64,000 nt of DNA from Strigamia acuminata (Eukaryota; Arthropoda; Chilopoda; Geophilomorpha; Linotaeniidae). The notes below the pieces were generated by a model. The model was not told the origin of the DNA and made no database searches. It worked only from the letters and a program-made list of their open reading frames with translations. Positions 7,360-29,619 of the stretch are shown here, piece by piece. The translations under genes were made by a program, and so were the position numbers. Numbering within the stretch: position 1 is the stretch's first letter; each line of letters opens with the position of its first letter. Location of the stretch: the NCBI GenBank assembly GCA_949358305.1, contig OX442319.1, forward strand, positions 13,888,001 to 13,952,000, in the 5' to 3' direction.

Positions 7360-7677
7360 CTAAAAACTAAGACCAACTTTTCCACCTTTTTCCGTAATAT
7401 TCGGGTGCCACAAACGCGTTTTGCACTTCACTAAGGGCGGCGCCATGTTGTATTCGTCCGGCACCAACACGTTGAATACGAACCGGCCTTCTTTCCACAT
7501 TCCTTCGTTTGAATTGATGATAAACTCGACAATTTTGGGACGTATTGATTTTCTAACGGTGCACGTTGGCGGCGGGTTGGCACGCAGAGCGGCCATTTCT
7601 TGCTCGCTTTGCATGTCTCGACAGAGCGATGCAGTGGACGGATCACTGAGCTTCCGTAGTTCCGTAGAAAAGGACAT
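7360..7677 (-). pseudogene. UBE2F-like (NEDD8-E2 family) gene copy 1, truncated
   Basis: Intronless 105-residue frame. It has the NPPPTCT segment, the EGRFVFNV..PDEYNMAPP core and the HPN motif of ubiquitin-like conjugating enzymes; it resembles UBE2F more than UBE2M. In the family a Cys follows HPN by about ten residues and carries NEDD8. Here the spot reads GGKVGLSF, with Gly102 in the Cys place, and a stop follows at once, so the C-terminal third is missing. The gypsy 3' LTR ends 15 bp further on. It shares upstream sequence with copies at 59.1 and 60.2 kb. Most likely a dead duplicate. Confidence 0.75.
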
Positions 7678-7960
7678 CGAAAAGGTGAATTTCGTGGCAG
7701 CTAAAATGTGATATTGTTTGGTGTCACGTGTGTCAATAAGTGCAATTTAATTGGTTTGAATGTGATTTATGCGCTATGAGATCGCGTGATTGTATTTACG
7801 TAAGAAATCGTGGGTAGGAAATACAAATTTTGAGTTATTTTTTATTTTTATTGGATTTTATCTGATTTTTCTGGTTGTGTACACAAAGCGAAATAAATAT
7901 GGTGACTAGAAAAATTGAAATTCACGAGCATGCGCGAACAGGTTGTGGCGATATCCGAAT
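7678..7960 (-). promoter_or_regulatory. Upstream segment shared by the UBE2F-like copies
   Basis: Read on the minus strand, this segment aligns by eye with 58,850-59,060 and 59,960-60,193. Shared blocks include ACCAATTAAATTGCACTTATT, a CACACGTGACA E-box-like site and CACATTTTAGCTGCC just before the start codon. Conservation of about 200-280 bp of upstream DNA in three copies means they arose by DNA duplication after the intronless gene formed, and it probably contains the promoter. No expression evidence is available. Confidence 0.5.
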
Positions 7961-9500: not shown

Positions 9501-10336
9501 GACTTGTTATGGTTTTACTATGTTTACATGCAAAGGCTCACAAATGACACTTAAATGGCTTTTCATGACAATTCGATCTTAAATGTGCATTTAAGTGTCC
9601 TTTGCTTACACACGAATAAGAACATCTCTGACATTTGAACACACTTTCTGCGGTGTGAGTCATTATCAGGTGACTCTTCAAGCTTGATCTGTGCCTACTT
9701 GCGTAAGAACACAAATGGCACTGGAATGGTTTTTCTCCAGTGTGAGTCATCATGTGACTTTTCAAGCATGTTGTGTCCCTACTTGCGTAAGGAATGACAT
9801 TTGAACGGTTTTTCTGCAGAATGAATTCGTAAATGTGTTCTCGAGGTAGCACTTTGTTTACTAGAGTAAGAACACAAATGATATTTCAACTATTTTTCTG
9901 CAGAATGAACTTTCAAGTGAGTTCGAAGATCAACGCTTCGTTTACCAGAATAATCACACTAATGACACTTGAATGGTCTTTCTACTGAATGAATTTTCAA
10001 ATGAGTCTGCAAGTGCGAGTTTTGTTTACTGGCGTAAGGACACAAATGACATTTGAGTGGCTTCGCAGTTGAATGTGTGGTCAAATGCGATTTTAAAGCT
10101 TTAGCTAGTCTGCACGCGAATGAACACAAATGGCACTTGAATGGCTTCTCTCCCGAATGAGCTTTCGTGTGATAAGCTAAACGACTGTTACTCTTAAATG
10201 TCTTGGCACACGCATTACATTTGAAGGGTCTTTCTCCGGTGTGGCCTAACATGTGATACTTTAAGCTGTTGATGGTTGAGGTTTTGTAATCGCATAAGAA
10301 GTTACAATTGTACTTGGGCGTGCTGGTTTCCGTCAT
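9501..10336 (-). pseudogene. C2H2 zinc-finger gene, decayed
   Basis: It begins like the intact genes at 45.7 and 48.4 kb (TSTPKYNCN..LCDYKTS, then HMLGHTGERPFKC) and keeps about five fingers to 9959. A stop then falls inside a finger (PFKCH-stop), and the remainder continues in shifted frames (9538-9852). An extra Phe in the first finger changes C-x2-C to C-x3-C, which would spoil zinc binding. The 5' leader matches the other genes (AATTTCTTTCAATTCTRAAAT on the plus strand). Fingers of the KPFKCHLCSYS type are DNA-binding modules, but this copy is broken. Confidence 0.8.
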
Positions 10337-11588
10337 GTCTCCTCACAGGTCTCCTCACAAACTCAATTTCTTTCAATTCTAAAATTCCATGAAAAACATC
10401 AATTTAAGAAAAACTTATTAAAGATCTGCGTGTTTTTTTTTTATATGAACCTGTATTGTTGTGTTAAATCAGGTCTCTGGTTGAATTCGTCCATTTCCGA
10501 AGTTTCTCGGCGTAATCGAATAAAATGTGCAATTTCAATACGGACAAAAAGATAAACAATTTGTATTATGAATTTAAAAATTGGATAAGTTGTGACGGTT
10601 ACGGCCACGGTGTGGTTTGCACTGACGATGCCACGCTCATACATGGACAAAAGTTAAGTTTTTTCCACATATTATGACCTCATTTCCTGCCTCCAAGTTT
10701 CAACAATGATTGCATTAGGCAATAACCATGTTGCAGCGCTTGCATCGAAGGAAATGTTCTTTACGTCAGAAAATTGATTATCAAGAGCACCGGCATGGAA
10801 ACTTATAAATTAACGATTGTTGCAAGCATTCTAAATACAAAACGTTTTATTTTTGTATTCAAAATATTGATTTGCAATGTACACTCACAGAAAGAAAAAT
10901 ATTCTTTTTATTTGTGTGATTTAATTTTTTTCATTTCGGTCTCTTATCAGTGTGGTCCAAACACCCCTAGCCTTGACCCCTGTATCAACAAACGAATGCC
11001 CCATTGAATTCAGAATTACGTCCAATTAATACAGAATTTTTAATAATTAAATTTAAAATTTCTTGAATATAAATAAAAAATGAAAAGAAAATGTCGGTAA
11101 ATGTTGCTTCAAGAAGCTCCATCAATAGAATTCATAAATAATGTTTGATGTCAAATAAAAACGTTCCACTTCCGCTCCCGAAGCAATAAAAACTCTGAAA
11201 GAATCAATTCATCGGGCGTAAGCAGTTGTCATTTATTTCTAAAATAAATCATTTTTATGTAAAATAGTAAACAGGATGTTAAATACATTGATTAGAAAAA
11301 CCAAAGAAGCAGAGCCGGTCAAGCTGAAGTAACACTTGCGTCAACTGGAATACACTCATTTACTATTCTCACCGTGGACGGTGAGAACATTTCCACTGCT
11401 CAACGGTTTGAATAACCTTTCACCGTTACTCATTGTGACCGATCAAATTCAAACAACTGGATTGACCAACTTTGATACAACTGCTTCGGTTGAACTACAT
11501 TTTCAGTCCTACGTAAAGGTAAATTTTATTACGTACACCAACTAAACCAGTAAACCAGACTTACAGATATATGTGAGAAAAATAAATA
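10337..11588. other. Intergenic region upstream of the channel gene
   Basis: AT-rich, with no supported protein gene. A plausible 5'-UTR intron lies just before the channel start: donor AAG|GTAAAT at 11,517 and acceptor TTACAG before 11,567, leaving a short leader before ATG 11,589. Promoter elements could not be identified with confidence. Confidence 0.35.
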
Positions 11589-12814
11589 ATGGAAGCGCAG
11601 CAAGCGAGCCAACCGTTAGGTCCGTTAGGCTGGATTCAGAAACACAGAATGCGTGACCTCGTTGCAAACATTCTCAGCGAGCAAACGGAGACACCGGAGT
11701 TGATCAAATCACTCAAGAAAATTTCGGGAAAGAAAAAGATTCTACGTGTACTAGTTTGCACTCTGCTCTTGATGAATATAGCAGCTTGTGTTTACCAAAG
11801 CGCAGACCGAATAATGCATTACATGTCTGAGCCAACAGCAGTTGACGCCACCTTAATTGAAACAACGGACGCATCTACGATGCCATTTGTTTATTTTTAT
11901 CCCCACACCACGCAAGAATTTAATAATTTCATAAATCAAAAAGACCAATGCAATAGTATGCACATTAATCCATCGCAATCACGACATAACTACTCAGACG
12001 TAATAAAATATGTGAGATCTTCTAACTTCATAACCGATGCCTACTTTGCAGCGGTAAATCATTTTCTTTTTTTTTAAATATTCTGTTGTCTGGAAATTCA
12101 ACGTTTAATCCAAAATCTAATTTCATGTACTCGTAATCTTTGTAGGGAATATCACGTGCTAACCTTACAGTTAAAATGCACCCTGCCCCTTGGCCAGTGA
12201 CTCAAGTTTCTAGTCGTGAGTCTACAAAAATTGGTTTATTTAAATTTTAAAATCCATTTTCTTTAGCATTTGTTTTTTCATCTGGAAATCAATATCACAA
12301 GATGATAATAAAATTCAAATTGCCCAAAAAATGCTGGGACATTGCTGTAAGTATTTGAGGAAGTTTTTAGTCTAGTGCATACAATACGCCACTGTACTAA
12401 TCGCCTATTTTTGTATCAATTATTGTTTATTGTTTTGATTTAAAGGTATTAATAGATGCCTCACCGATCGTGGATCACTTATACACATCTAATTTACCCA
12501 GAATGCCATGTTATCGCAGAATGAACCATGCTGGAATAATCACGCAGAAAGTAAGGATTAAGTTCAAAGTTCAAAATTCAAAAAATAAGATGTTACTGTC
12601 TTAGCAGTCAAACATGTAATGTTTAGTTCTACAACTTTCAGAACATTAGCGCTGTTTGTTTACTCTATGTAACAATTGTGCTAAAATTAATTAAATCTTT
12701 CCTTTTAAACTCGTTTTAGTTTCACTTTATTAACCTGAAACGAAAACCGTGTGGCAATCAAGTCGACTTTGAGAACTGCTTGCGAGCTTGTTTCAGGAAA
12801 ACGCTAAACGTCAG
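11589..12814 (+). CDS. DEG/ENaC unit A, exons 1-5 (N-terminus, TM1, extracellular part)
   Basis: Exon 1 starts MEAQQASQ, with cytosolic basic residues, TM1 (about residues 54-72, LRVLVCTLLLMNIAACVYQ) and the post-TM1 segment FVYFYPH that takes the place of the family's FPAVT. Donors/acceptors: GCG|GTAAAT to TGTAG|GGA; AGTC|GTGAGT to TTTAG|CA; GCT|GTAAGT to AAAG|GTA; AAA|GTAAGG to TTTTAG|TTT; CAG|GTACTG. Exon 5 holds PCGNQVDFENCLRAC, the Cys cluster typical of the thumb region. Introns 1-4 are short (51-169 bp); intron 5 is about 1 kb and houses a MITE. Confidence 0.8.
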
Positions 12815-15800
12815 GTACTGTAAAGTGTCGTTATGACAAAATCTGCATATCCAAACGCAGATATCCATTGGATGTCAACAGGTGTTGTATTTTACAACTC
12901 ATTGCCAAAAAAAATAGAATATTGGTCAAAACTAAGTTCATCACCTCTTTTAATACAATTTTCTAAACTAACAAAATAAATGAATAAACAATACTTTTAG
13001 GATATAATTCTACCATTATTTGGCTACAATTTTTGTTGGAATTATTCAAACATTCCCGCGCATCGCGTCGTAACATCCACCAAACCCTAGTTACGACTCG
13101 GGTATAAACGTTCATAGAACGTTCAGTAGGTGCATTCAAAAAGTCTAAAACGTATGCAAAACTCGTTTAGTGTTTGCACGTGACGTCATTCCCATTGAAT
13201 AACATGGAAATGACGTCACAAGTACAAACACGAAACGAGTTTAAGAGGCGTTTTAGAGTTTTTGAATGCACCTAGTGTATTTTGAGTATGATTATGATTC
13301 AATTTTGAGTAATCTGGATTTACAAAATGACAAAAAAATGGAATGTGCAATTGTTTGTGACAAAAACAATGGAGCAATGAGTTAAAGTGATATACAAAAC
13401 ATTTATTAGTTGAAATTACAACTTTTAGTTGATGTGGATCATCGTTTTGCATTAATTACAGTTTGGATTTTGTTATAGTTTCAAGCAATAAATGTTTTTT
13501 ATGTCACTTTTCCACATTCTTACATTGGTAAATTGAATCAATATTTTTCAGTTCTATTTCAACCAAACCACAGCTAAATAATGCTAGAATCGTATCCTAA
13601 AAACCATCGTTTATTTATTTACTTTGTTACCTTTAAAAAGTTGTAGCAACAAACGGTCATGAACATAGTTTGACCAATATTCCATTTTGGCAAGGAGCTG
13701 TACTGTATAAATACTGAGTTGTGTAGCTTGTTCAAATGTTGGGATAAAGGTTTAGGGGCTTTCATTTGTCCTAAAGTTCAGAAAATCACTGTGTTCATAT
13801 TGTTTCAGTGATTTATATTATGAACTACAAAATCTACAAAAATTCAGCCAAACTGAAATTCAAAGGCAGTACGGGTATATAACAGATCTCTTTATCAATG
13901 ACAATGCCATTCAGATGTGCAAATGTCTCGATTTATGCGATGTAACACATCAAAGCACTTCATTCAATACAGAGTATTATAAAGAAGATGTTCTACAAGT
14001 ATATGCTGTGAATAATTATGTTCGTACAATGCAAGAACGTCACTCTTATGATCTCATCGATTTATTGTGTGATATCGGAGGAACCATCGGTCTCTATTTC
14101 GGCATGTCATGCTTAACACTCGTTGAAATATTTGTCCACTGCTGCAAAACACCTTTCGTCAAGTCCTACAAAACAACTAAAGGAAATTGCCAGTTGAAAG
14201 AGAGAATACAAACGATACTCGAAAAGAAACAGAAAACGCAAAAACAATCATTTGTCAAAAAACTATTGAAAATGAAAACCATCGTAATATTATTCCTGCT
14301 CTCTCTTTCTGTTTATTACATGTACGATTTGGTGGACGAGTTTCTTAAATATCCAGTCTATCAATCTGTTAGACTCGAAAGAGACGAATTCATACATTTT
14401 CCACAAATTATTGAATGTGAAGAGAATTATAAAATATTAAAAGCAAAAAATGATTTAGCTAAAAAAATGAAAGCTAATAGCAAAGATTACCAACTCATCG
14501 ATTTGCTTCATCAATCATCAGAATTCGCTAACGAGCCACTGCAATTATGGAACGCTTCATCCAATTTCAAATACTATGACGACGAAATGCGGAAACGCCA
14601 GTCGAATGTAAGCAAATGAACATTCAAAGAAGGTGAATTTGTTTGCATACTTTTATTTTTTTTTACAGCCTAATTTTCAAAAACTAGATGCTTATACTGT
14701 ATCTACTCTGTCAACAATGTTTGGACTATGCAGTGTTATCAAGAAAAGTAGCAAAAATTTGACATTATTCTATGCGATCTTTCAACTTGTTTAGCCACCT
14801 AAAGTTCTAACACACGTAGCCCTAAGAATTGACCCAAAATGCACCAGCATTGTAAAAGACTAGCGGATACATTTCATATTTTCATAATGATGGGTTTGAC
14901 ATTTACCATGTTTACATGTACTCACTTATCTAGATAAGTGAAAATGCGAATTTTACTTTTCTGGAAAACTGATCATGTAAACAAATCAGTTTTCCAGAAA
15001 AGTCAAACTTATCTGGAAAACTAAAATCCACTTGTTTGAGGTAGATTTTGGGTGTTTTGCGCATTGCCATTTGCAATGTAAACACCCACTCATTGCATAA
15101 GCTGACGTCACAACAACGCTGTAATGCAACTGTTTAAAAACATGGCGGCAAAGTGGAGCGAGCACAGTGCTTGCAATGTTAGAATGAATGGGAAACACCA
15201 ACGAAACAAAACAATATTTTCCGAGGTTGGCGGGAAGACATATTGTTTGTGCACAGTGCATTGTGGATGATTAATGCGCAAGTTTAACAGAGAGTTAAAT
15301 ACGTCATATGACGTCAAATTTTTTGGAAAACTGATTCTTTGTAAACGCATGCAGTTTTATAGATAAGTAAAAATTCGCATTTTTACTTATCTAGATAACT
15401 GGTAACATGTAAACATGGTAATTGTCACAACATCAAAACGAGTTAACGTGCATGTTGGCAATGCTGCTAATGTATCTCGATTGAGGAACCTCTGCACCTT
15501 CAAATATTGCTTAATTGCAGCATGAACCAAGCATGACATGAACACGTATCCTTTTTTCGACCCGGCTGCTTTTTTACTACACTTTTTTCACCCGACTGCA
15601 AGTAAAGTTCGATACAAGTTAGGACGTCACCCAAATCGTCACACCAGCACTGTAAAACAATAGCAGATATGTTTTTTTTAATGTATGATCGCCTTTTGTT
15701 TCAAGTCACAACACCAAAACACGAGTACTCAAGCAAAAGTTGTGTACAATCCTGGCCATAAAAATTGTCGCTGGCTAGTCATGCTCAGCTTGCTGCTGAA

Positions 15801-18800
15801 GTTGAGACTGACTAGTTACAATTGCAGCCACCAGAGCGATTGGTCAAGTCTACTCTTTTTAGGGATCACACCTAACTAGCTGCAACTGATCAGACTTCAT
15901 TCTTAATACGGTAACAAATAAATAGCTGTCATTTTGATAAGATTTTCTGAATCCTTGGGTTTAAAAAATAAAAAAAAATAAAATGTGAATTACCGTACGT
16001 TGCTTTGTAACCTAAAGTTTAAAAAATGTTTAATTTGAAATCTGAATAAAGGTGGTCGTAAAACTATCACAACATAGCAGGATTTTTGTGCTAAAATGCT
16101 GAATTTCTGTGCAAAAGTGCTGATTTTCTGTGCAAAAATGCTGAATTTCTGTGCAAAAATGGTAAATTTCTGTGCAAAAATGGTGAATTTCTGTGCAAAA
16201 ATGGTGAATTTCTGTGCAAAAATGGTGAATTTCTGTGCAAAAATGGTGAATTTCTGTGCAAAAATAGTGAATTTCTGTGCAAAAATGGTTAATTTCTGTG
16301 CAAAAATGGTGAATTTCTGTGCAAAAATGCTGAATTTCTGTGCAAAAGTGCTGATTTTCTGTGCAAAAATGCTGAATTTCTGTGCAAAAATGCTGAATTT
16401 TGTTACAAAAATGCTAAATTTTAATTTAAAAAAGCCATTTTTAGTTATAAAAATACTCAATTTATATGACCAAGATAATTGTTTATCTGCAAAATTGCAA
16501 TTTCTTAGAAAATAAGTCATTTTTATAGATGAAAGGCTATTTAGTATTTTTTTGCAAAATAAATACTAAACTTAAATACCACTTTCACAAAAATATTTTT
16601 CAATTTTCTCTGAAACTGGTTGAATTTCCGTAGTTTGTGGAGTTTGTGTATTTACTGTTAAATACACATTATTACAACTCACTCATGCTACGAATATTCC
16701 TAAAATTTTGCTCATTTCATCATTAGACAGGTGACTATACTCTTTCCACACTCAAGGTTGACCCTGGAAGCTGGGCTCCCATTGGCCTACTTAGAACTGC
16801 AATGTAACTATATAGCATTGCATTTCTAAGTAGGCCAATGGGAGCCCAGCTTCCAGGGTCAACCTTGAGTGTGGAAAGAGTATAGGCATTTTAATTTGGA
16901 CAAAATAAATTTTTCAATTTTATAATGCAAATGAACGAGTGTAATACAACAAATATAACAGCTGAAACAATCACCCACCCTAGATAATAGACTTATCTAA
17001 TCACCCTTGTGGCAAAAATTGAAATTAATCATTTCAATTCCAGCAGCAAGCAGGATGCGACAATTTTTATGGCCACGATTGTACGTGTTGGCAATGTGTG
17101 CTTACCATGCTTGACCTTAATTAATCAATCACAGATGCAGTGGGATATATTTTGTGCTGGCGCCATATTTGACCACCAGGGTTACTTTGTTGACTCACAA
17201 TGTAAATGGGTTGAGGCAACTATTGATTTAAAGGGAGGGGAATGATATTACAATGTAATCCATTGCGTACTTGTGCTTTTCTGTACCATCCAAGATGCAA
17301 TCGAAATCAGTTTCGGTCATGCTGGTGACACACTAGGCGTTTTGCGACGCGATTCGCGCCGCGAAGCGATTTTGACGTCATGAAAAATGACGTCACATCC
17401 GGTTTTAATCGCGGGGCAGTACTTTTGCGGCGCGATTTTGATAGTACATGCACCTTGTACTATTTTGGTCGGCGATTTCAATCGCAGCCAATCCGGTGAG
17501 ACCAGGTCTCACCTGATTGGCTGCGATCGAAATAAAAATAATTCTGGTTTTTTTAAAAATAAAAACGTTGCCCTCACGTTTCCCACATTTTGCATTGGCA
17601 GTATTAAGCCTAATATTACGGTAGGCCTAATAATGCTAAAAATAAGGTAGACAAATAAAAACAGTTTGGTACTACGCTGTGAATTACTTCTAATAATGAG
17701 TTTATTTTTGTTTATTTCCTTTATTTTAGCATTATTAGGCCTAACATTAGGCTTAATACTGCTAAATAACATCTGGAATTAGATAATCCTTTGCGCAGAT
17801 GTCGATAAAAATAAGAAACTGGAAATAGCCAATAATTCGTGGTCCTCCATTTTTTTAACAACAATGTGTTCCTAAAATCAGCAGTTGTCAGCTGTTTTTA
17901 TTTGCATCGCATCGCATTGTGCCTAGTGTGTCATGCCTGGCGAAATAGCTGGGCGATTCGCCTAGCGATGCTATCGCCTGTCACGTGGTCGCGGCGCGAA
18001 TCGCGTCGCAAAACGCCTAGTGTGTCACCAGCATTAGTTTCGATCCATCGACTTTCCAAAGTAACAATTAATTATTCATAATTTAACAAGAGTTGCTACC
18101 CGCAACAATTCCACTTTTTCCCATCGTAAACACGTCACATCGAATAATTTTTTCTTTCTGCTTCTAAATGTTCTAGAAGAAGCACGGTTTGTTCCGAATA
18201 GGAACAGGGTAGACTTTTATAAAATGTGGAACATCAACAAACTTCAGCCAGTGAGAAATTTTGAACTTTTGAATTAAACGAATTATTTCAACTTGAGATG
18301 CATTGTAGCACTTCATTCTGCCACAAAATCAATATTTTCATCCTAAACACATTTTCTACATACACGGTGGAAGTTTTGTTAAAATTCATATTTCCCGTCA
18401 AACGGTAAACTTATAATTGAATCAGAAAAACTGTGCAGAGTGCTTAGAACACATTAGTTCATTCCAGATTGTTCGAGTCGATACCCCGACAAGCCCGTGT
18501 GGTGACAACGAGCAAGTATCAGAATGTGAACAGGACTGTTATGCATCCCGACTGAATATTTCATGCAGGTCAGCATTTACATTATCACATTATTCTAGAG
18601 CATTTAGTTTACTGAATGAATGAAACTACGGCACAAACTGCAAACTGTAATCCAGAGAAAATACTATAAGAACAATAAGATTTTAAACTTATGTACAGTA
18701 CATTGCTACAGTAGATGCCACAACTGGTTTGTATTGCATGTATTCGTAAAGCAAGTAGATTGGGACACTATAGGAATACTCTACATCACTTTTCAACGAT

Positions 18801-21781
18801 TCTGCTCTATTGTGTTGCAATGCTACAAATACCCTTTACTTAACAACATTTATTTCTAGTGGGAATATGGTAGAATTAATACTGTATTTATTTGATTAAG
18901 AACCACCCTCGAATAAGAGCCGCGGTGGAGACAGTACAACCCCAAGCCAAAATATTAGAATACTCGGATTTTGTCAGTATTCCATGTTCCTCAAATGGGC
19001 TAGAAACAAAAGTTTCAAAGTTAAACAAATATCCACAAAAATACTTTGAAAACATGTTTAATTGGCTTTATTTTAAGCAAAAAAAATTTAAAAAAGGTGA
19101 GATATTTATCCCATTATCCACAAAAACGTCTGTGACAAAACATTAGAATCACAAAAGTGTTGAGACAAAAAATTAGAATAATTTGCAAAAAATAGCAAAA
19201 CATCATTCCACGTGACCAAATTGCCGCAAATAACCTCAAACAATGTGCACACATTATCACTAAATTAAAATGGGTGCCAACAATGACATCTCCATGGAGA
19301 AAGAGAGCAAATTGTCTAACTTATTGTCTAATTTATTTTTCAACATGACCTGGCTTCCGCTCATGGTGTGGGCCTCTATTACTAGTGAGCAGTGTAAGAA
19401 GTTGGTGGACTTGATGCCGTGACGATTGAGGGCTGTGATTGATGCAAAAGGAAGACCAACCAAATACTAAATGCTATCATTCTTTAAATGAGTGGGATAG
19501 ATAAGATTTCTGTCTCTTCTCACAATTATTCTAATTTTTTGTCTCAACACTTTTGTGATTCTAATGTTTTGTCACAGACGTTTTTGTGGATAGTGGGATA
19601 AATATCTCACCTTTTTAAAATTTTTTTTGCTTAAAATAAAGCCAATTAAACATGTTTTCAAAGTATTTTTGTGGATATTTGTTTAACTTTGAAACTTTTG
19701 TTTCTAGCCCATTTGAGGAACATGGAATACTGACAAAATCCGAGTATTCCAATATTTTGGCTTGGGGTTGTAAAAATATTGTATTATCGCAAAAATACGG
19801 TAAATTTTTGTTTTTAACGTAACAAACGGAAAAAAATGTTGGATATTCAATTTTCTTCGAATATGAGCCGCGGCTCTCATTCAAATAAATATGGTACTCC
19901 GTAATATTTTTTATGTGTAACAAAAGTCACATTAAATGAATTGAATACAGTAGTGTTGCAGAATCATTCTGGTTCTAATGTCTTGTTTGGGTGAAATCAG
20001 GTTGGAACAAGTCTGATGTTAATTATTTATTTCAGCTAAATCAACCGTAAGTAACATTAAGGTTCGTGTGTTTATGTTGCTGACATCCTTTTCGCACCAG
20101 AAGGTTTGAGCTATCCCAAAGTTTAAATCTAGTTCTGGTTATTGGTGCGAATGCATCTAGCCTACATTTATCTATGGCAGTTTAAAACTTTTTAAACTAT
20201 ACTCTAACACTAACTCACTACAAAGTTGGCCTAACTCCCATTGGCCGAGATGTTGTGTTCAACTCTAAATCTTACGAGTCATTACATAAATAATGAGGAA
20301 TTATGCTAATTCACAATAACCTTAGGAATCTTTGTTGAATTGTAAAACCAATGTAACCGACTCTGTCGCCCCCCAGGACCTGAGAGTCCGTGTATGCCGC
20401 GTTCGTCCTGCGTTCTCTGTTAACGCCACGACGACGTGGCCGTACGGAATTCCGACCACCCGTGTCATTCGACCAATGGCCGCTGTGCCACGCGGTCTGG
20501 TTAGGAATGGCTGTTCGCAGGTATCGCATTGGGAAATGCACTATGAGACACCACATCATACCCCTAGACATAATAAAGCTTAACATAAACTAAACTTGTC
20601 TCTCTCGTGTATTTCGTTGTATTTTATATCGTGTGTTGTGTCCAGCGTCCCGTGGCTCTCCCCCGACCACATGGCGACCGTCCAAACACTCACAAATCCA
20701 TCTCCGTTCATATTAATAATAATAATAATAATAATAAGGAATAAGAATCTTGAGTGAGAATGATTTACGAGCCATATTACCTCTAACTAGAAACCGTGCA
20801 CTACTGCAAAGCAAAGTAGTTCTGTTTGTTTTTAATCATTTTGAGTATTAAAGCGATTAAAATGCAGTAATCTTTTTGGATTTAATAATAAAACGTTTAT
20901 TTTATTTGTAAAATAATTTTTTTTGTTGGTTGCATGTCACAGAACAATTTTTGCTTTGTTTGTTTTGACAGGATAACAAATTTTACTCTGCTTATTGGAT
21001 GTTTTGGCAGGAAAAATGCTTATTTATTTTCTTGCAAATTTACTTGAGAAAAAAAATTTAAAAAGCAATTATTTTACCTTTTTCGTGATTAGTTATTTAC
21101 TATTCTAGTCAAGGATCAATTAATTAATTAGTTAAATATCCTACATGACTCAAAACATTCATCACGCAAACAAATAATTGATTACAATTCACGTAAGATT
21201 TTTTTTTACAAAAAGTTAACAAACATTTTCAATTGAGAAATTTTTAAATTTCACAATATATTTCTAATATATTTCCAATATAAAAAAAATACTACCTTCC
21301 ATTTTTTAAATTTTAAATACACCTAGCTGAAAATGTTTTTTTTTATTCAAATTCAAATTTTCTATATAAAATTCCAACTTGCGAATGTTGTGAAAGTCAC
21401 TTTTTCTTAGTATATGCATGTATTCTAATTTCAAGAATTCATAGATTACCATTTATGAAGAATAGCAATTCATCGCTTTGCACCAAATTAGAAGAAGCAA
21501 AAGCAATGCAAAAAACATATTTGGAAACTCAAATGAAGACAAACCCTCAGAAAGACTGTAGGTGCAAAACCCGCTGCACAGAAACCATATTCCATCCAGC
21601 AGTGGTAGTGGAAATAAGATTAGTCCATTCACGTGCTTTATACAAGATTCCGGAAAACGTTAGAGAAGTGATTAGAGAAGAGAGAATGGTTACGCTCACA
21701 AAATTGTTTTCTAATATTGGTTCTGTAATTGGCATTCTGATCGGACTCTCAACGTTTTCTGTCATAAATAATTTGATTTAA
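11589..21781 (+). CDS. Two-domain (concatenated) DEG/ENaC cation channel, multi-exon
   Basis: Degenerin/ENaC subunits have two membrane helices around a Cys-rich extracellular domain, and three subunits make a Na+ channel. This locus encodes two such units in series. Joined exons: 11589-12053, 12146-12215, 12267-12346, 12446-12550, 12720-12814, 13809-14607 (538 codons, all phases agree, all introns GT..AG), then 14669-about 14790, 18468-18568 and about 21436-21781. Exon 6 alone carries the TM2 of unit A (DIGGTIGLYFGMS, GxS filter), a Lys-rich cytosolic loop and the TM1 of unit B. The last exon holds the TM2 of unit B (GILIGLS). Exons of unit B between 14,795 and 18,467 were not found, so the full frame is not proven. 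Confidence 0.8.
13127..13274. mobile_element. 148-bp palindromic MITE (family M1) in intron 5
   Basis: Imperfect inverted repeat running TAGGTGCATTCAAAAAGTCT to its complement ending GCACCTA. It has TA at each edge and a TGACGTCA-containing centre. The left half of a second copy lies at 21,887. TA edges suggest mobilisation by a Tc1/mariner-like transposase; it encodes nothing. Confidence 0.8.
13809..14607 (+). CDS. DEG/ENaC exon 6: end of unit A fused to start of unit B
   Basis: The exon begins in phase 2 (acceptor TTTCAG at 13803-13808), matching the phase-2 donor of exon 5. It encodes MCKCLDLCDV (Cys pair before TM2), then SYDLIDLLCDIGGTIGLYF, GMS and LVEIFVHCC: a full TM2 with the selectivity-filter GxS. 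Without any stop it continues through a basic loop (about 50 residues) into IVILFLLSLSVYYMYDLV, a second TM1, followed by YPVYQSV and FIHFPQIIEC, the usual post-TM1 region. It ends with donor AAT|GTAAGC. Since this is one exon, the fusion is not a gene-prediction artefact. Confidence 0.9.
14669..14791 (+). CDS. DEG/ENaC unit B, exon 7 (3' end uncertain)
   Basis: The acceptor TTTTACAG at 14661-14668 is preceded by a long T tract, and the exon opens in phase 0 as required. It reads PNFQKLDAYTV..TMFGLCSVI; the FGLC segment is typical of the early extracellular domain of the family. The frame stops at 14792-14794, so a donor must lie before it; candidates are weak (for example AAA|GTAGCA near 14750), so the end is not fixed. 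Confidence 0.6.
14904..15420. mobile_element. 517-bp foldback element with long terminal inverted repeats
   Basis: The left end TACCATGTTTACATGT and the right end ACATGTAAACATGGTA are inverted copies. Similarity continues inward over about 100 bp (TTATCTAGATAAGT, GCGAATTTT, GGAAAACTGAT). Inverted similarity may extend outward (TTTGACAT / ATTGTCACA). The centre has no transposase. It lies in an intron of unit B of the channel gene. Confidence 0.75.
15430..16080. other. Intronic stretch of the channel gene
   Basis: AT-rich. A 64-residue plus-strand frame at 15,685 shows no channel motif. Missing exons of unit B could lie here but none could be picked out by eye. Confidence 0.35.
16084..16430. 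repeat. 21-bp minisatellite, about 16 copies
   Basis: The tandem unit is about AATTTCTGTGCAAAAATGGTG; edge units are degenerate (GCTGAATTT, CTGATTTTC). Because the unit is seven codons long and stop-free in some frames, long repetitive frames appear on both strands; these are not genes. The region is intronic to the channel gene. Confidence 0.9.
16736..16884. mobile_element. 149-bp snap-back MITE with 69-bp arms
   Basis: The arms at 16,736-16,804 and 16,816-16,884 differ at one base and are separated by 11 bp (TAACTATATAG). The ends are TATACTCTTTCC / GGAAAGAGTATA. Such near-perfect arms mean recent insertion or recent conversion. No coding content. Confidence 0.9.
16900..17318. other. Intronic stretch
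   Basis: A 78-residue plus-strand frame (17,009-17,245) is present, without a recognised domain or channel motif. Nothing else is supported. Confidence 0.35.
17319..18034. mobile_element. 716-bp MITE with GC-rich ends, possible 10-bp target duplication
   Basis: The inverted ends run ATGCTGGTGACACACTAGGC..CCAGCAT and match for nearly 50 bp, through TTTGCGACGCGATTCGCGCC. The flanks carry AGTTTCGGTC on the left and AGTTTCGATC on the right, a possible 10-bp duplication with one change, suggestive of a MULE-type transposase. An internal hairpin lies at 17,477-17,536. A second MITE (17,599-17,762) is nested inside. No transposase is encoded. Confidence 0.75.
17599..17762. mobile_element. Nested 164-bp MITE
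   Basis: Inverted ends CAGTATTAAGCCTAAT.. and ..ATTAGGCTTAATACTG, with arms of about 45 bp that include AGGCCTAATAATGCTAAA. It lies wholly inside the 716-bp MITE, so it inserted later. Confidence 0.7.
18468..18568 (+). CDS. DEG/ENaC unit B, Cys-rich exon homologous to exon 5
   Basis: The acceptor is CATTCCAG and the donor CAG|GTCAGC. The exon reads IVRVDTPTSPCG, then SECEQDCYASRLNISC. It starts in phase 0 and ends in phase 2, exactly like exon 5 of unit A (PCGNQ..FENCLRAC..), and is nearly the same length (101 against 95 bp). This is good evidence that unit B is a duplicated channel domain and not chance similarity. Confidence 0.75.
18935..19772. mobile_element. Tc1/mariner-like element with arms of about 245 bp, internally deleted
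   Basis: TA-bounded: TACAACCCCAAGCC at the left and GGCTTGGGGTTGTA at the right. The arms (18,935-19,185 and 19,524-19,772) are nearly identical over about 245 bp. The centre keeps only the end of a transposase gene. TA target and family are inferred from the ends plus that remnant. Confidence 0.8.
19340..19470 (+). pseudogene. Tc1-like transposase C-terminal remnant
   Basis: The frame reads ..TSEQCKKLVDLMP, stop, RLRAVIDAKGRPTKY, stop. The CxxLVDxMPxR..AVI.AKG..TKY ending is the characteristic Tc1-family C-terminus. The Arg codon after MP has become TGA, and the catalytic DDE part is absent, so it cannot work. Confidence 0.75.
19897..20351. other. Intronic stretch
   Basis: No exon, repeat or RNA gene recognised. 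Confidence 0.35.
20352..20689 (+). mobile_element. Isolated LTR with adjoining primer-binding site
   Basis: TGTAACCGACTCTG at 20,352 begins a roughly 320-bp GC-richer block with an AATAAA at 20,570. It ends CCCCGACCACA at 20,671 and is followed directly by TGGCGACCGTCC, as at an LTR/primer-binding-site junction. No Gag or Pol follows; an (ATA)n run begins near 20,712. It looks like a 5' LTR left after loss of the body. Confidence 0.6.
20690..21410. other. AT-rich intron end
   Basis: A short (TAA)n microsatellite (20,712-20,738) and AT-rich DNA leading to a T-rich tract before the last channel exon. Nothing coding seen. Confidence 0.5.
21436..21781 (+). CDS. DEG/ENaC unit B, last exon with TM2
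   Basis: It contains CRCKTRCTETIF (the pre-TM2 Cys group), VTLTKLFSNIGSVIGILIG and the GLS filter, then ends soon after the helix with TAA at 21,779-21,781, leaving almost no cytosolic tail. An acceptor at 21,434-21,435 (TTCAAG) gives the phase 2 needed to follow exon 18468-18568. A stronger-looking acceptor (TTTTTCTTAG, 21,401-21,410) would need phase 1 and an extra exon upstream. Confidence 0.75.
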
Positions 21782-21886: not shown

Positions 21887-21990
21887 TAGGTGCATTCAAT
21901 AAGTCTAAAACGTATGCAAAACTCGTTTCGTGCTTGCACGTGACGTCATTCCCATTCCCATTGAATAACATGTAATTCAATGGGAATTTA
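21887..21990. mobile_element. Left half of an M1 MITE at the head of the satellite
   Basis: TAGGTGCATTCAATAAGTCT onwards matches the 13,127 MITE through GTGACGTCATTCCCATTGAATAACATG. Where the right arm should follow, the 25-bp satellite starts instead (21,991). No right arm is seen at the far end of the array. Confidence 0.8.
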
Positions 21991-24900
21991 ACTTTGTCAA
22001 ACTCGTCTCATTTTAACTTTGTCAAACTCGTGTCATTTTAAATTTCTCAAACTCGTGTCACTTTAACTTTGTCAAACTCGTGTCATTTTATCTTTGTCAA
22101 ACTCGTGTCACTTTATCTTTGTTAAACTCGTCTCATTTTAACTTTGTCAAACTCGTCTCATTTTAACTTTGTCAAACTCGTCTCATTTTAACTTTGTCAA
22201 ACTCGTCTCATTTTAACTTTGTCAAACTCGTCTCATTTTAACTTTGTTAAACTCGTGTCATTTTAAATTTCTCAAACTCGTGTCACTTTAGCTTTGTCAA
22301 ACTCGTGTCATTTTAAATTTCTCAAACTCGTCTCACTTTAACTTTGTTAAACTCGTGTCATTTTAACTTTGTCAAACTCGTCTCATTTTAACTTTGTCAA
22401 ACTCGTGTCATTTTATCTTTGTCAAACTCGTGTCACTTTATCTTTGTTAAACTCGTCTCATTTTAACTTTGTCAAACTCGTCTCATTTTAACTTTGTTAA
22501 ACTCGTGTCATTTTAACTTTGTTAAACTCGTGTCATTTTAACTTTGTTAAACTCGTGTCATTTTAACTTTGTTAAACTCGTGTCATTTTAACTTTGTCAA
22601 ACTCGTGTCATTTTAACTTTGTTAAACTCGTGTCATTTTAACTTTGTCAAACTCGTGTCATTTTATCTTTGTCAAACTCGTGTCACTTTATCTTTGTTAA
22701 ACTCGTCTCATTTTAACTTTGTCAAACTCGTCTCATTTTAACTTTGTTAAACTCGTGTCATTTTAACTTTGTTAAACTCGTGTCATTTTAACTTTGTTAA
22801 ACTCGTGTCATTTTAACTTTGTTAAACTCGTGTCATTTTAACTTTGTTAAACTCGTGTCATTTTAACTTTGTTAAACTCGTGTCATTTTAACTTTGTTAA
22901 ACTCGTGTCATTTTAACTTTGTCAAACTCGTGTCATTTTATCTTTGTCAAACTCGTGTCACTTTATCTTTGTTAAACTCGTCTCATTTTAACTTTGTTAA
23001 ACTCGTGTCATTTTAACTTTGTTAAACTCGTGTCATTTTAACTTTGTTAAACTCGTGTCATTTTAACTTTGTCAAACTCGTGTCATTTTATCTTTGTCAA
23101 ACTCGTGTCACTTTATCTTTGTTAAACTCGTCTCATTTTAACTTTGTTAAACTCGTGTCATTTTAACTTTGTTAAACTCGTGTCATTTTAACTTTGTTAA
23201 ACTCGTGTCATTTTAACTTTGTTAAACTCGTGTCATTTTAACTTTGTTAAACTCGTGTCATTTTAACTTTGTCAAACTCGTGTCATTTTATCTTTGTCAA
23301 ACTCGTGTCACTTTATCCTTGTCAAACTCGTCTCATTTTAACTTTGTTAAACTCGTGTCATTTTAACTTTGTTAAACTCGTGTCATTTTAACTTTGTCAA
23401 ACTCGTCTCATTTTAACTTTGTTAAACTCGTGTCATTTTAACTTTGTTAAACTCGTGTCATTTTAACTTTGTCAAACTCGTCTCATTTTAACTTTGTCAA
23501 ACTCGTCTCATTTTAACTTTGTTAAACTCGTGTCATTTTAACTTTGTCAAACTCGTCTCATTTTAACTTTGTCAAACTCGTGTCATTTTAACTTTGTTAA
23601 ACTCGTGTCATTTTAACTTTGTCAAACTCGTCTCATTTTAACTTTGTTAAACTCGTGTCATTTTAACTTTGTCAAACTCGTCTCATTTTAACTTTGTCAA
23701 ACTCGTCTCATTTTAACTTTGTTAAACTCGTGTCATTTTAACTTTGTTAAACTCGTGTCATTTTAACTTTGTCAAACTCGTGTCATTTTAACTTTGTTAA
23801 ACTCGTGTCATTTTAACTTTGTCAAACTCGTCTCATTTTAACTTTGTTAAACTCGTGTCATTTTAACTTTGTTAAACTCGTGTCATTTTAACTTTGTCAA
23901 ACTCGTCTCATTTTAACTTTGTTAAACTCGTGTCATTTTAACTTTGTTAAACTCGTGTCATTTTAACTTTGTCAAACTCGTCTCATTTTAACTTTGTCAA
24001 ACTCGTCTCATTTTAACTTTGTTAAACTCGTGTCATTTTAACTTTGTTAAACTCGTGTCATTTTATCTTTGTCAAACTCGTGTCACTTTATCTTTGTTAA
24101 ACTCGTCTCATTTTAACTTTGTTAAACTCGTGTCATTTTAACTTTGTCAAACTCGTGTCATTTTAAATTTCTCAAACTCGTCTCACTTTAACTTTGTTAA
24201 ACTCGTGTCATTTTAACTTTGTCAAACTCGTCTCATTTTAACTTTGTCAAACTCGTGTCATTTTATCTTTGTCAAACTCGTGTCACTTTATCTTTGTTAA
24301 ACTCGTCTCATTTTAACTTTGTCAAACTCGTCTCATTTTAACTTTGTTAAACTCGTGTCATTTTAACTTTGTTAAACTCGTGTCATTTTAACTTTGTCAA
24401 ACTCGTGTCATTTTATCTTTGTCAAACTCGTGTCACTTTATCTTTGTTAAACTCGTCTCATTTTAACTTTGTTAAACTCGTGTCATTTTAACTTTGTTAA
24501 ACTCGTGTCATTTTAACTTTGTTAAACTCGTGTCATTTTAACTTTGTCAAACTCGTGTCATTTTATCTTTGTCAAACTCGTGTCACTTTATCTTTGTTAA
24601 ACTCGTCTCATTTTAACTTTGTTAAACTCGTGTCATTTTAACTTTGTTAAACTCGTGTCATTTTAACTTTGTTAAACTCGTGTCATTTTAACTTTGTTAA
24701 ACTCGTGTCATTTTAACTTTGTTAAACTCGTGTCATTTTAACTTTGTCAAACTCGTGTCATTTTATCTTTGTCAAACTCGTGTCACTTTATCCTTGTCAA
24801 ACTCGTCTCATTTTAACTTTGTTAAACTCGTGTCATTTTAACTTTGTTAAACTCGTGTCATTTTAACTTTGTCAAACTCGTCTCATTTTAACTTTGTTAA

Positions 24901-27888
24901 ACTCGTGTCATTTTAACTTTGTTAAACTCGTGTCATTTTAACTTTGTCAAACTCGTCTCATTTTAACTTTGTCAAACTCGTCTCATTTTAACTTTGTTAA
25001 ACTCGTGTCATTTTAACTTTGTTAAACTCGTGTCATTTTAACTTTGTCAAACTCGTGTCATTTTATCTTTGTCAAACTCGTGTCACTTTATCTTTGTTAA
25101 ACTCGTCTCATTTTAACTTTATTAAACTCGTGTCACTTTAGCTTTGTCAAACTCGTGTCATTTTAAATTTCTCAAACTCGTCTCACTTTAACTTTGTTAA
25201 ACTCGTGTCACTTTAACTTTGTCAAACTCGTCTCATTTTAACTTTGTTAAACTCGTGTCATTTTAACTTTGTTAAACTCGTGTCATTTTAACTTTGTCAA
25301 ACTCGTGTCATTTTATCTTTGTCAAACTCGTGTCACTTTATCTTTGTTAAACTCGTCTCATTTTAACTTTATTAAACTCGTGTCACTTTAGCTTTGTCAA
25401 ACTCGTGTCATTTTAAATTTCTCAAACTCGTCTCACTTTAACTTTGTTAAACTCGTGTCACTTTAACTTTGTTAAACTCGTGTCATTTTAACTTTGTTAA
25501 ACTCGTCTCATTTTAACTTTGTCAAACTCGTCTCATTTTAACTTTGTCAAACTCGTCTCATTTTAACTTTGTCAAACTCGTCTCATTTTAACTTTGTTAA
25601 ACTCGTGTCATTTTAAATTTCTCAAACTCGTGTCACTTTAGCTTTGTCAAACTCGTGTCATTTTATCTTTGTCAAACTCGTGTCACTTTATCTTTGTTAA
25701 ACTCGTCTCATTTTAACTTTGTCAAACTCGTCTCATTTTAACTTTGTCAAACTCGTCTCATTTTAACTTTGTTAAACTCGTGTCATTTTAAATTTCTCAA
25801 ACTCGTGTCACTTTAGCTTTGTCAAACTCGTGTCATTTTAAATTTCTCAAACTCGTCTCACTTTAACTTTGTTAAACTCGTGTCATTTTAACTTTGTCAA
25901 ACTCGTCTCATTTTAACTTTGTTAAACTCGTGTCATTTTAACTTTGTTAAACTCGTGTCATTTTAACTTTGTCAAACTCGTCTCATTTTAACTTTGTCAA
26001 ACTCGTCTCATTTTAACTTTGTCAAACTCGTCTCATTTTAACTTTGTTAAACTCGTGTCATTTTAAATTTCTCAAACTCGTGTCACTTTAGCTTTGTCAA
26101 ACTCGTGTCATTTTAAATTTCTCAAACTCGTCTCACTTTAACTTTGTTAAACTCGTGTCATTTTAACTTTGTCAAACTCGTCTCATTTTAACTTTGTTAA
26201 ACTCGTGTCATTTTAACTTTGTTAAACTCGTGTCATTTTAACTTTGTCAAACTCGTCTCATTTTAACTTTGTCAAACTCGTCTCATTTTAACTTTGTCAA
26301 ACTCGTCTCATTTTAACTTTGTCAAACTCGTCTCATTTTAACTTTGTTAAACTCGTGTCATTTTAACTTTGTCAAACTCGTCTCATTTTAACTTTGTTAA
26401 ACTCGTGTCATTTTAACTTTGTTAAACTCGTGTCATTTTAACTTTGTCAAACTCGTGTCATTTTATCTTTGTCAAACTCGTGTCACTTTATCTTTGTTAA
26501 ACTCGTCTCATTTTAACTTTATTAAACTCGTGTCACTTTAGCTTTGTCAAACTCGTGTCATTTTAAATTTCTCAAACTCGTCTCACTTTAACTTTGTCAA
26601 ACTCGTCTCACTTTAACTTTGTTAAACTCGTGTCATTTTAACTTTGTCAAACTCGTGTCATTTTATCTTTGTCAAACTCGTGTCACTTTATCTTTGTTAA
26701 ACTCGTCTCATTTTAACTTTATTAAACTCGTGTCACTTTAGCTTTGTCAAACTCGTGTCATTTTAAATTTCTCAAACTCGTCTCACTTTAACTTTGTTAA
26801 ACTCGTGTCATTTTAACTTTGTCAAACTCGTCTCATTTTAACTTTGTCAAACTCGTCTCATTTTAACTTTGTCAAACTCGTCTCATTTTAACTTTGTTAA
26901 ACTCGTGTCATTTTAAATTTCTCAAACTCGTGTCACTTTAGCTTTGTCAAACTCGTGTCATTTTAACTTTGTTAAACTCGTGTCATTTTAACTTTGTCAA
27001 ACTCGTGTCATTTTATCTTTGTCAAACTCGTGTCACTTTATCTTTGTTAAACTCGTCTCATTTTAACTTTATTAAACTCGTGTCACTTTAGCTTTGTCAA
27101 ACTCGTGTCATTTTAAATTTCTCAAACTCGTCTCACTTTAACTTTGTCAAACTCGTCTCACTTTAACTTTGTTAAACTCGTGTCATTTTAACTTTGTCAA
27201 ACTCGTGTCATTTTATCTTTGTCAAACTCGTGTCACTTTATCTTTGTTAAACTCGTCTCATTTTAACTTTATTAAACTCGTGTCACTTTAGCTTTGTCAA
27301 ACTCGTGTCATTTTAAATTTCTCAAACTCGTCTCACTTTAACTTTGTTAAACTCGTGTCATTTTAACTTTGTCAAACTCGTCTCATTTTAACTTTGTCAA
27401 ACTCGTCTCATTTTAACTTTGTCAAACTCGTCTCATTTTAACTTTGTTAAACTCGTGTCATTTTAAATTTCTCAAACTCGTGTCACTTTAGCTTTGTCAA
27501 ACTCGTGTCATTTTAACTTTGTTAAACTCGTGTCATTTTAACTTTGTCAAACTCGTGTCATTTTATCTTTGTCAAACTCGTGTCACTTTATCTTTGTTAA
27601 ACTCGTCTCATTTTAACTTTATTAAACTCGTGTCACTTTAGCTTTGTCAAACTCGTGTCATTTTAAATTTCTCAAACTCGTCTCACTTTAACTTTGTTAA
27701 ACTCGTGTCACTTTAACTTTGTTAAACTCGTGTCATTTTAACTTTGTCAAACTCGTCTCACTTTAACTTTGTCAAACTCGTCTCACTTTAACTTTGTTAA
27801 ACTCGTGTCACTTTAACTTTGTCAAACTCGTGTCATTTTATCTTTGTCAAACTCGTGTCACTTTATCTTTGTCAAACTCGTGTCACTT
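21991..27888. repeat. 25-bp satellite, first block (about 236 copies)
   Basis: The unit is ACTTTGTYAAACTCGTSTCAYTTTA, 25 bp, head-to-tail, with a few recurring variants (ATCTTTG, AGCTTTG, AAATTTCTC, ACTTTATT). Variants recur in fixed strings, giving higher-order blocks. It begins about 210 bp past the stop codon of the channel gene, and is interrupted at 27,888 by the DIRS element, then resumes in phase and orientation at 33,357. Confidence 0.97.
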
Positions 27889-28031: not shown

Positions 28032-28408
28032 GACCACAGGTCAGGACACGTTTTTGCATCAATCCGAGGAAAAAATTTGTTCCTACTTCCTTTTTTCTTC
28101 GTAATCGCTGTATATTTTCGGTAAGATTTTATTTATTGCATTTGTTTTAACGAAATTTACGTTTTTATTAACTTTTCGCGCTCCGATACCCATAAAAATC
28201 AAGAAAAAGTGATATATCGTGTTCGGAGACGCGTGGCCCGTGTAGGCCTAACCGTTATAAAGTTCTTTATTTTTTCAATAATTCGTTCTGCCTACGTTTC
28301 TCGTTTGGCGGACGTACAGCCGACGTTTTTTCGTCAGTTTTACCGAAATTTCCTTCGTTTTCATCTGATTTTTTAAACAAAAAGTTTTTTATTTAGTTTT
28401 CTTTCGAG

Positions 28409-29545
28409 ATGGCACAAGCTGCGATTAATCTGAGATCCAGAAAAGCTACCAGTAAGTCTAATCGGAAAAATACACGTAGTAAGACGGCGCCGCCACCTGT
28501 TTCCAGCCCGGACTTGTCGTTTCAAGACGAAGAAGACGAATCTGACGGCGATTTGATCATTTCGGATCAAGTCGGTGACGTAGACGTAACGTCTCGCGAT
28601 AACTTTACATTGTCTAAGCAGATGTTAGACGATATTGTTAGAAATGCCGTCGACGACGCGCTTTCTAAGGACCAGACCCGAAATTCGGTTCCCATTTGGG
28701 AGGATTTAGCCGGGTCTTCGGTCAACTTTTTACCCGAAAATAATCCTGGGTAAGTACATGCATCTAATGATAGATTGCGGGATTTATTTTCATTTTAATC
28801 TGAAAAAATTTTTATTTTTTCCCCAGCCACTCTGATAGTGGTCTGGACAAAGATTTTCAGGCCTGCCGTAGCAGCAGTGTCCGCCATTTTGCTCCTGATC
28901 CGACGGATGGAGATTTTTTCGACCGAGATTCGCGATCACGTCAGTCCGACGATTCTCTTCGCGACTTTTTCGATTCGCCGACGCACACGGATTTCGATGA
29001 CAATTGTGATGGCGATTATGATGGAGGTTTTGAGGTTCCGACTTGGGGAGACGAGGTTGAGAAACCTTTTCTGTCTGATGGCGCTGCTGCTATGATTGAA
29101 AAGCAGCTCACCGCAAAATTTTCAGTCAGTCTGCGCTCTTCCCTGATCAGACAATTCCCAATCCCTTCACGCCAGGTTTCTTTCTTGCGACCTGCTAAAC
29201 TCGATGCTGATATCGAGAGTTACGTTAAGATTAGGTCCACCACGTTCTGCGCTCCACGTGAGAAGCTGTTTAAGGAACTGACCGTTACAGCAATGAAAAC
29301 TGCGGCGGTTGCAGCTTCTGTCTTCGACCGAGAATTTAATAACCGCCCGCTGAATCGTACGGAATCCCTGACTGCAATGCAGGCGATTTTCTTTCAGATT
29401 CAATCGGTCGTTAATAAACTTAACGACGAAAGAAGGCGTAATGTGGTTCTCGGTTTGGCTGGTCGAAATGGCATCAACATTGCCTCTTCCTTCAAAGAAA
29501 GTCGTCATGAATATCTCTTTGAAAACCGGTTTAGTGAAATTTTCA
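28409..29545 (+). CDS. DIRS Gag-like protein, exons 1-2
   Basis: Exon 1 (28,409-28,749) ends at CTGG|GTAAGT; exon 2 (28,827-29,545) begins after TTTTCCCCAG and ends TTCA|GTAAGA. Joined, the frame runs on without a stop and reaches exon 3 at 29,620 (acceptor AATTTCTAG), which leads into the pol frame. Exon 1 is basic then acidic; exon 2 has an Asp-rich stretch followed by a structured region (VSLRSSLIRQFPIPSRQV). All three splice phases agree. Introns in DIRS elements are known but not common. The alternative is separate short frames, which seems less likely. Confidence 0.75.
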
Positions 29546-29619
29546 GTAAGAAACTGCCTTTTTTCTCTGTAAAAAGTTTTTTAATTAATCAAATTATTTA
29601 TACTTCTTTAAATTTCTAG

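What the first reader, a model, noticed from the sequence alone, without database searches (positions are those of the whole stretch)
11589..21781. DEG/ENaC channel gene with two complete channel units in one polypeptide
Seen: one exon (13,809-14,607) reads a TM2 with the GxS filter and then, without stop or splice, a basic loop and a new TM1. The Cys-rich exon occurs twice (12,720-12,814 and 18,468-18,568) with the same phases 0 and 2, and a second TM2 exon (GILIGLS) ends the gene. Known: DEG/ENaC subunits have two helices and assemble as trimers. Inference: a natural dimer would constrain assembly (two polypeptides would give four units, so one would be spare, or a single-unit subunit would be the third). 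I know of no described natural concatemer of this family.
Basis: partly seen in the sequence, partly recalled or inferred. Interest (0 to 1): 0.87.

Follow-up and report, generated by a model that had tools for sequence, protein, structure and literature searches.

The report
Centipede channel gene with fused subunits
A centipede gene encodes two complete sodium-channel-type subunits joined end to end in one protein, and it belongs to a family of well over a hundred such double genes, although related channels are known as assemblies of three separate subunits.

Summary
The window is from the centipede Strigamia acuminata: contig C1 has exactly the published longest-scaffold length. At 11,589-21,781 lies an intact 11-exon gene model for a 766-residue protein with two complete DEG/ENaC units. 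The exons thought missing are present: 14,669-14,747, 18,177-18,250 and 18,309-18,404. Each unit alone passes Pfam's ASC cut-off, and both units show the same series of intron phases. The exon that runs from TM2 of unit A into TM1 of unit B occurs at 171 or more places in this genome, 164 of them without a stop, and in S. maritima proteins. Its linker is under purifying selection (dN/dS 0.27), TM2 more so (0.07); outer extracellular exons B2+B3 exceed 1 (1.55). I read this as a receptor-like repertoire of natural two-subunit channels, made by tandem duplication and exon fusion. Six transcript-sized proteins from unnamed sources are of three-unit size; two were checked and carry three units. 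Expression, stoichiometry and ligand are untested; structure prediction never ran. Ten paper searches listed no natural DEG/ENaC concatemer.

The parts
11589..21781 (+). whole twin DEG/ENaC gene, 11 exons, 766 residues
   Evidence: splice model, no stop; ASC E 6.1e-25 with 4 stretches
11589..12053 (+). exon A1: start, TM1 of unit A, first part of its extracellular domain; ends in phase 0
   Evidence: profile E 3.1e-69; 150 listed relatives in the genome
12146..12215 (+). exon A2, phase 0 to 1
12267..12346 (+). exon A3, phase 1 to 0
12446..12550 (+). exon A4, phase 0 to 0
12720..12814 (+). exon A5, Cys exon of unit A, phase 0 to 2
13809..14607 (+). exon M, phase 2 to 0: Cys region and TM2 (GLYFGMS) of unit A, basic cytosolic linker (topology inferred), TM1 and first extracellular part of unit B
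   Evidence: open throughout; recurs at 171 places; dN/dS by part
14669..14747 (+). exon B2, phase 0 to 1
   Evidence: paralogues and frame; donor gtagca is weak
18177..18250 (+). exon B3, phase 1 to 0
   Evidence: frame, order and paralogues; least conserved, not hit by the profile scan
18309..18404 (+). exon B4, phase 0 to 0
18468..18568 (+). exon B5, Cys exon of unit B, phase 0 to 2
21445..21781 (+). exon B6: Cys region and TM2 (GILIGLS) of unit B, stop TAA

Best explanation
This is one gene for one four-helix protein: two covalently joined DEG/ENaC subunits, A and B, with both ends and the linker on the cytosolic side. It arose when a single-subunit gene was duplicated in tandem and the last exon of the first copy became continuous with the first exon of the second; the introns kept their phases. 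The fused gene then multiplied into at least 171 copies, many of them clustered. Pore helices, Cys exons and linker are conserved while outer extracellular exons change fast, which fits a repertoire of sensory, most likely chemosensory, channels. The likely pore is still a trimer, in which one twin supplies two neighbouring units and the third comes from a single-unit DEG/ENaC or from a second twin. Shown by sequence: the open gene, both units, the family, the selection pattern. Inferred: transcription, topology, trimer, sensory role.
For: Intact 11-exon model with 10 GT-AG introns; each unit over the ASC cut-off; A and B profiles match each other, E 2.7e-14; same series of phases in both units; 171 fused exons, 164 without a stop; 134 of 150 listed A1 exons have a fused exon downstream on the same strand within 30 kb; linker dN/dS 0.27 and TM2 0.07 against 1.01 for the neighbouring extracellular part; B2+B3 dN/dS 1.55, bootstrap 1.07-2.37; S. 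maritima proteins read across; GxS filter in 34 of 35 A rows (33 distinct copies) and 15 of 15 B exons; nearest solved relatives BRTNaC1 and PDPNaC1 are centipede sensory DEG/ENaCs with three chains per entry; two single-unit loci have the same phase-2 intron before TM2 and a stop soon after it.
Against: No transcript of a Strigamia twin was found: the full-length search returned only other proteins and the S. maritima hits are gene models. P0012 drops most of the linker and P0013 lacks TM2-A. Only 10 of 21 annotated loci are complete; six lack exons inside the DNA fetched, and 7 of 171 fused exons hold a stop. 16 of 150 A1 exons have no listed fused exon within 30 kb. The annotator imposed the phases after they had been read by hand. 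The HG string before TM1 is absent in 10 of 10 complete proteins, so gating may differ. dN/dS near 1 can also mean relaxed constraint. Nothing tests the trimer or the sensory role.
Confidence: 0.72

Rival explanations
1. Two ordinary neighbouring single-unit genes; the continuous exon is an accident or an assembly error.
For: Single-unit DEG/ENaC genes exist in this genome (93 scored ASC matches; two with a stop after TM2).
Against: 171 fused exons on many contigs, 164 open; linker dN/dS 0.27; S. maritima too; the Met before TM1-B of the window clade is absent from that column in all 18 distant copies L024-L041, though some have a Met further in.
Confidence: 0.04
2. One message and one primary product, but the linker is cut after translation, so that A and B act as separate subunits made in equal amounts.
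For: The linker is long and basic (13 K+R, 2 D+E in 48 residues).
Against: The linker is conserved as a whole without an evident cleavage motif (inspection), and it is inferred to be cytosolic, away from secretory proteases.
Confidence: 0.08
3. Two twins make a four-unit pore, a DEG/ENaC tetramer.
For: Two units per chain tile four places without a spare. One paper in the listing argues for tetrameric ASIC1a at the cell surface (PMC4529235; title and start of abstract only).
Against: Solved relatives have three chains per entry; PDPNaC1 is described as a homotrimer. The related concatemers checked have three units.
Confidence: 0.1
4. The twins are real but not sensory: they are ion-uptake, osmoregulatory or mechanical channels, multiplied for dose or tissue specificity.
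For: The S. maritima genome paper names sodium transport among enriched functions of lineage-specific duplicates (passage).
Against: 171 diverging copies with dN/dS above 1 in outer exons B2+B3 suggest diversification, not dose.
Confidence: 0.25

Closest known systems
BRTNaC1 (PDB 8ymr, 8ymw, 8ymx and others) and PDPNaC1 (PDB 9jf7), DEG/ENaC channels of the centipede Scolopendra
   Same: Best sequence matches among solved structures; both from centipede sensory neurons according to passages of PMC12714832.
   Different: One unit per chain (431 and 421 residues), PDPNaC1 a homotrimer; here two units per chain.
ASIC, ENaC, FaNaC and pickpocket subunits (DEG/ENaC family, Pfam PF00858)
   Same: Same unit plan: TM1, Cys-rich extracellular domain, TM2 with GxS.
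   Different: Single units that assemble as trimers (established knowledge); no HG string before TM1 here.
Three-unit DEG/ENaC proteins P0002-P0007 from unnamed sources
   Same: Units joined tail to head; residues 406-546 of P0002 match twin fused exons across the linker.
   Different: Three-unit size (two of six checked for three ASC stretches); tree groups A with B apart from the triple units, 94/92 with long branches, so the fusions are probably separate.
Laboratory-made ASIC and ENaC concatemers
   Same: Subunits linked C-terminus to N-terminus; used to fix composition (for example PMC10329638, listing and start of abstract).
   Different: Those are engineered; this is a natural gene family.
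Natural internal-repeat channels such as two-pore-domain potassium, two-pore and voltage-gated sodium or calcium channels (recalled, no call)
   Same: Subunits joined in one chain by internal duplication.
   Different: Those have two or four repeats that fill a pore of four-fold type; here two repeats meet a three-fold pore, which one chain cannot fill.

Membership tests
DEG/ENaC (Pfam PF00858, ASC) | Sequence match above the curated cut-off, in each unit | tested here: met
   Unit A 57.7 bits, unit B 45.2 bits, cut-off 23.6; 5 of 5 family proteins match ASC
DEG/ENaC (Pfam PF00858, ASC) | Two membrane helices flanking a large Cys-rich extracellular domain, per unit | tested here: met
   Window protein: hydrophobic stretches at 50-72, 363-383, 420-448, 736-766; Cys exons A5, B5 and the CxCxxxC-type region in M and B6. 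In some of the other nine complete proteins one or two helices fall below the simple cut-off. Orientation in the membrane not tested
DEG/ENaC (Pfam PF00858, ASC) | GxS selectivity filter in TM2 | tested here: met
   34 of 35 rows for A (33 distinct copies), 15 of 15 for B
DEG/ENaC (Pfam PF00858, ASC) | HG gating motif before TM1 (common in the family, recalled; not part of the Pfam definition) | tested here: not met
   String HG absent from residues 1-50 and 386-440 in 10 of 10 complete proteins
DEG/ENaC (Pfam PF00858, ASC) | Trimeric assembly, sodium conductance, amiloride block | not testable with these tools
   No experiment; structure prediction not reached
Conventional single-unit DEG/ENaC subunit | One unit per polypeptide, stop soon after TM2 | tested here: not met
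   Reading continues through the linker into TM1-B; two single-unit loci of this genome, of 8 examined, do stop after TM2
Natural concatemer (new kind proposed here) | Reading frame across the joint kept by selection | tested here: met
   Linker dN/dS 0.27, jackknife 0.25-0.32, 15 distinct copies; 164 of 171 open
Natural concatemer (new kind proposed here) | Transcribed and translated as one chain | tested here: inconclusive
   Selection and S. maritima gene models support it; no cDNA or protein seen

The most novel reading that the evidence does not exclude
A whole receptor repertoire of more than 170 genes is built from covalent two-thirds of a three-unit channel. Each twin sets two neighbouring places of the pore and needs a shared single-unit partner as the third, much as insect odorant receptors need their co-receptor. 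In other animals the third unit has been joined as well, giving one-chain trimers.
Probability: 0.35. Interest if true: 0.95.

Novelty: new variant of a known kind. Interest (0 to 1): 0.87.

Why it matters
Linked DEG/ENaC subunits are made in the laboratory to fix channel composition; here evolution has done it on a large scale, with two units for a pore of three. That makes subunit order and stoichiometry testable in natural proteins. It would also add a large receptor-like family, which I found described in none of the papers searched, to centipedes, for which gustatory and ionotropic receptor expansions were reported (PMC4244043, passages). The three-unit proteins suggest that joining is a repeated route in this superfamily.

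Tried and rejected
A direct join of exon B2 to B4 was rejected because the frames did not fit, which led to exon B3. A third unit in the window was sought and not found. One common fusion for twins and triples was considered; the tree leans against it, with long branches. Structure prediction of an alignment headed by S. maritima P0012 was tried eleven times without reaching the queue. A COX1 search for identification did not complete. MAFFT misplaced fragments in alignment A4, so A4 was not used further.

Limits of the counts: each list 144-150 scored matches out of more than 1,300 candidates, so 171 is a lower bound. From I entered by hand only places that looked new. Six of the 171 lie on unplaced contigs and may be second haplotypes. 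L010 = L042 and L015 = L043; these doubles were dropped before the dN/dS of 15 copies but not in the first version (17 rows, linker 0.29). Sequence pairs in the dN/dS sums are not independent, and the bootstrap is over codon columns only. The check that ASC matches lie apart from fused exons used 51 of the 171 places, chosen as the nearest on shared contigs; one of 93 lies within 25 kb, at 22 kb.

Full report
What is there. The window is C8:13,888,001-13,952,000 of a 237,517,015-base genome in 157 contigs. Its contig C1 is 66,985,994 bases, exactly the longest scaffold given for the centipede Strigamia acuminata (PMC10556566, passages: 237.5 Mb, 158 scaffolds). Hits to S. maritima proteins agree.

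Gene model. I compared the window with 20 related 10-kb stretches of the same genome, read exon ends by hand in several of them and wrote a splice-aware annotator that imposes those phases. The window gene has 11 exons with GT-AG introns and no stop: A1 11,589-12,053; A2 12,146-12,215; A3 12,267-12,346; A4 12,446-12,550; A5 12,720-12,814; M 13,809-14,607; B2 14,669-14,747; B3 18,177-18,250; B4 18,309-18,404; B5 18,468-18,568; B6 21,445-21,781. The product has 766 residues. Phases at the ends of A1 to A5 are 0, 1, 0, 0, 2; those at the ends of M and B2 to B5 are the same. A free choice would agree once in 243; since the small B exons were found with paralogues and frame as guides, this figure is only a rough guide. 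Exon M joins the TM2 exon of A with the TM1 exon of B. A stop lies one codon before the start, and no third unit is seen in the window. B3 is the least conserved exon and rests on phase, order and paralogues; the B2 donor (gtagca) is weak.

Both halves are DEG/ENaC. Each half passes the ASC cut-off (57.7 and 45.2 bits against 23.6). Profiles of A and B, from ten complete proteins, match each other (hhalign E 2.7e-14 over 141 columns, Cys exon to TM2). The best solved relatives are BRTNaC1 and PDPNaC1, which passages of PMC12714832 describe as channels of the centipede Scolopendra, PDPNaC1 a homotrimer of antennal neurons. The filter is GxS in 34 of 35 A rows (33 distinct copies) and 15 of 15 B exons; the HG string before TM1 is absent in 10 of 10 complete proteins.

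It is a family. The fused exon was listed at 144 places with the window's copy as query. With three further queries the union is 171: 77 on C6, 63 on C1, 23 on C8, 2 on C9, 6 on unplaced contigs; 111 of 171 lie within 50 kb of another. Seven of 171 contain a stop in at least one listing. Of 150 listed A1 exons, 134 have a fused exon downstream on the same strand within 30 kb and 112 within 10 kb; 25 have one within 10 kb the wrong way; 16 have none within 30 kb. Of 21 loci annotated, 10 are complete; L034 and L035 lack only A4; L029 and L036 are cut by the fetched end; L043 is cut at one end and lacks B6 in 4.7 kb at the other; six lack exons within the fetched DNA (L026, L028, L031, L038, L041, L042). 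So part of the family is broken, has long introns or escapes the annotator.

A second, distant twin lies on C3 at about 35,560,582-35,565,708: A1-like, Cys, fused, Cys and terminal TM2 exons with a stop; its small exons were not modelled. A similar match lies at C3:35,532,563, not fetched. The two-unit plan is therefore probably old within this lineage.

Is the join translated? Among 15 distinct close copies of exon M, Nei-Gojobori dN/dS is 1.01 for the end of the A extracellular domain, 0.07 for TM2-A, 0.27 for the linker (jackknife 0.25-0.32), 0.30 for TM1-B and 0.49 for the start of the B domain. Purifying selection on the linker indicates that it is protein. The Met just before TM1-B in the window clade is absent from that column in all 18 distant copies L024-L041, though some have a Met further in. 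Six S. maritima UniRef proteins match the fused exon; P0008-P0011 read through the linker, P0012 drops most of it and P0013 lacks TM2-A. Of 8 loci with ASC matches examined, two gave a clean motif match; in both the TM2 exon begins after the same phase-2 intron and stops soon after TM2. That is what the ancestral single gene may have looked like.

How it probably works. Over four sets of close paralogues, dN/dS is 1.55 for B2+B3 (bootstrap 1.07-2.37), 1.05 for A4 (0.61-1.90), 0.79 for A2+A3, 0.68 for A1, 0.62 for M, 0.54 for B6 and 0.26 for the Cys exons A5+B5. Only B2+B3 is above 1 by this test, and relaxed constraint is not excluded. Many clustered copies, a fixed pore and changing outer parts suggest sensory receptors. 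The S. maritima genome paper reports sodium transport and sensory perception of taste among functions enriched in lineage-specific duplicates (passage); its main text as held has no occurrence of degenerin, amiloride or sodium channel. If the pore is a trimer, a twin fills two places. The genome also gives 93 scored ASC matches, which I did not sort into genes; none was within 20 kb of the 51 fused exons compared. Such single-unit genes could supply the third place. This step is inference.

Concatemers elsewhere. The full-length search returned two proteins, of 1,307 and 1,271 residues, each with three ASC stretches. Searching with P0002 gave P0002 and five others of 1,245-1,272 residues, 43-87% identical to it, all from source lgn without names. 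Only P0002 and P0003 were scanned with Pfam; all six were split by alignment to P0002. In the tree, A, B and each of the three triple units form one group with 100% bootstrap; A+B split from the triple units with 94/92, with long branches. Separate fusions are likely but not proven.

What is in print. Ten paper searches, of which aimed at fused or two-domain DEG/ENaC, listed no natural concatemer of this family; three of them return only the top of long lists. The library leaves out most subscription journals and all preprints. Of papers I saw listings and, for four, passages (PMC10213821, PMC10556566, PMC12714832, PMC4244043).

Verdict. The strongest open points are transcription, oligomer state and stimulus.

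Noticed in passing
proteins P0002-P0007: Three-unit DEG/ENaC proteins of about 1,250-1,300 residues from unnamed transcript-sized contigs; natural one-chain trimers if real.
   Followed up: partly
L046, L044, L045 (C3:35,558,800-35,568,400): A second, distant twin DEG/ENaC gene with the same exon plan on another chromosome.
   Followed up: partly
window 21,987-27,885 and 33,359-40,605: Two large arrays of a 25-base satellite (unit TTTAACTTTGTCAAACTCGTGTCAT), on either side of a mobile element with reverse-transcriptase-like and recombinase-like frames (about 28,397-32,809); it looks as if the element had landed in one array.
   Followed up: no
window 2,313-7,010: Open frame of 1,565 codons that reads like a Gypsy-type retroelement polyprotein (recognised by eye).
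   Followed up: no
window 9,538-10,342, 44,493-45,713, 47,578-48,447, 49,324-51,143: Several C2H2 zinc-finger frames with 84-base repeats, on both strands.
   Followed up: no
window 52,856-55,621 (-): Open frame of 921 codons that looks like a NACHT-type NTPase receptor (by eye).
   Followed up: no
window 7,360-7,746, 59,019-59,591, 60,140-60,616: Repeated pieces that look like a ubiquitin-like conjugating enzyme (UBE2M type, by eye), some possibly processed copies.
   Followed up: no
window 16,082-16,463 and about 16,740-16,885: Between B2 and B3: a 21-base tandem array and, by eye, a long inverted repeat, perhaps a small mobile element.
   Followed up: no
window 18,927-19,144 and 19,528-19,780: Between B5 and B6: long inverted arms visible in the sequence and in paired tandem-repeat rows.
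   Followed up: no
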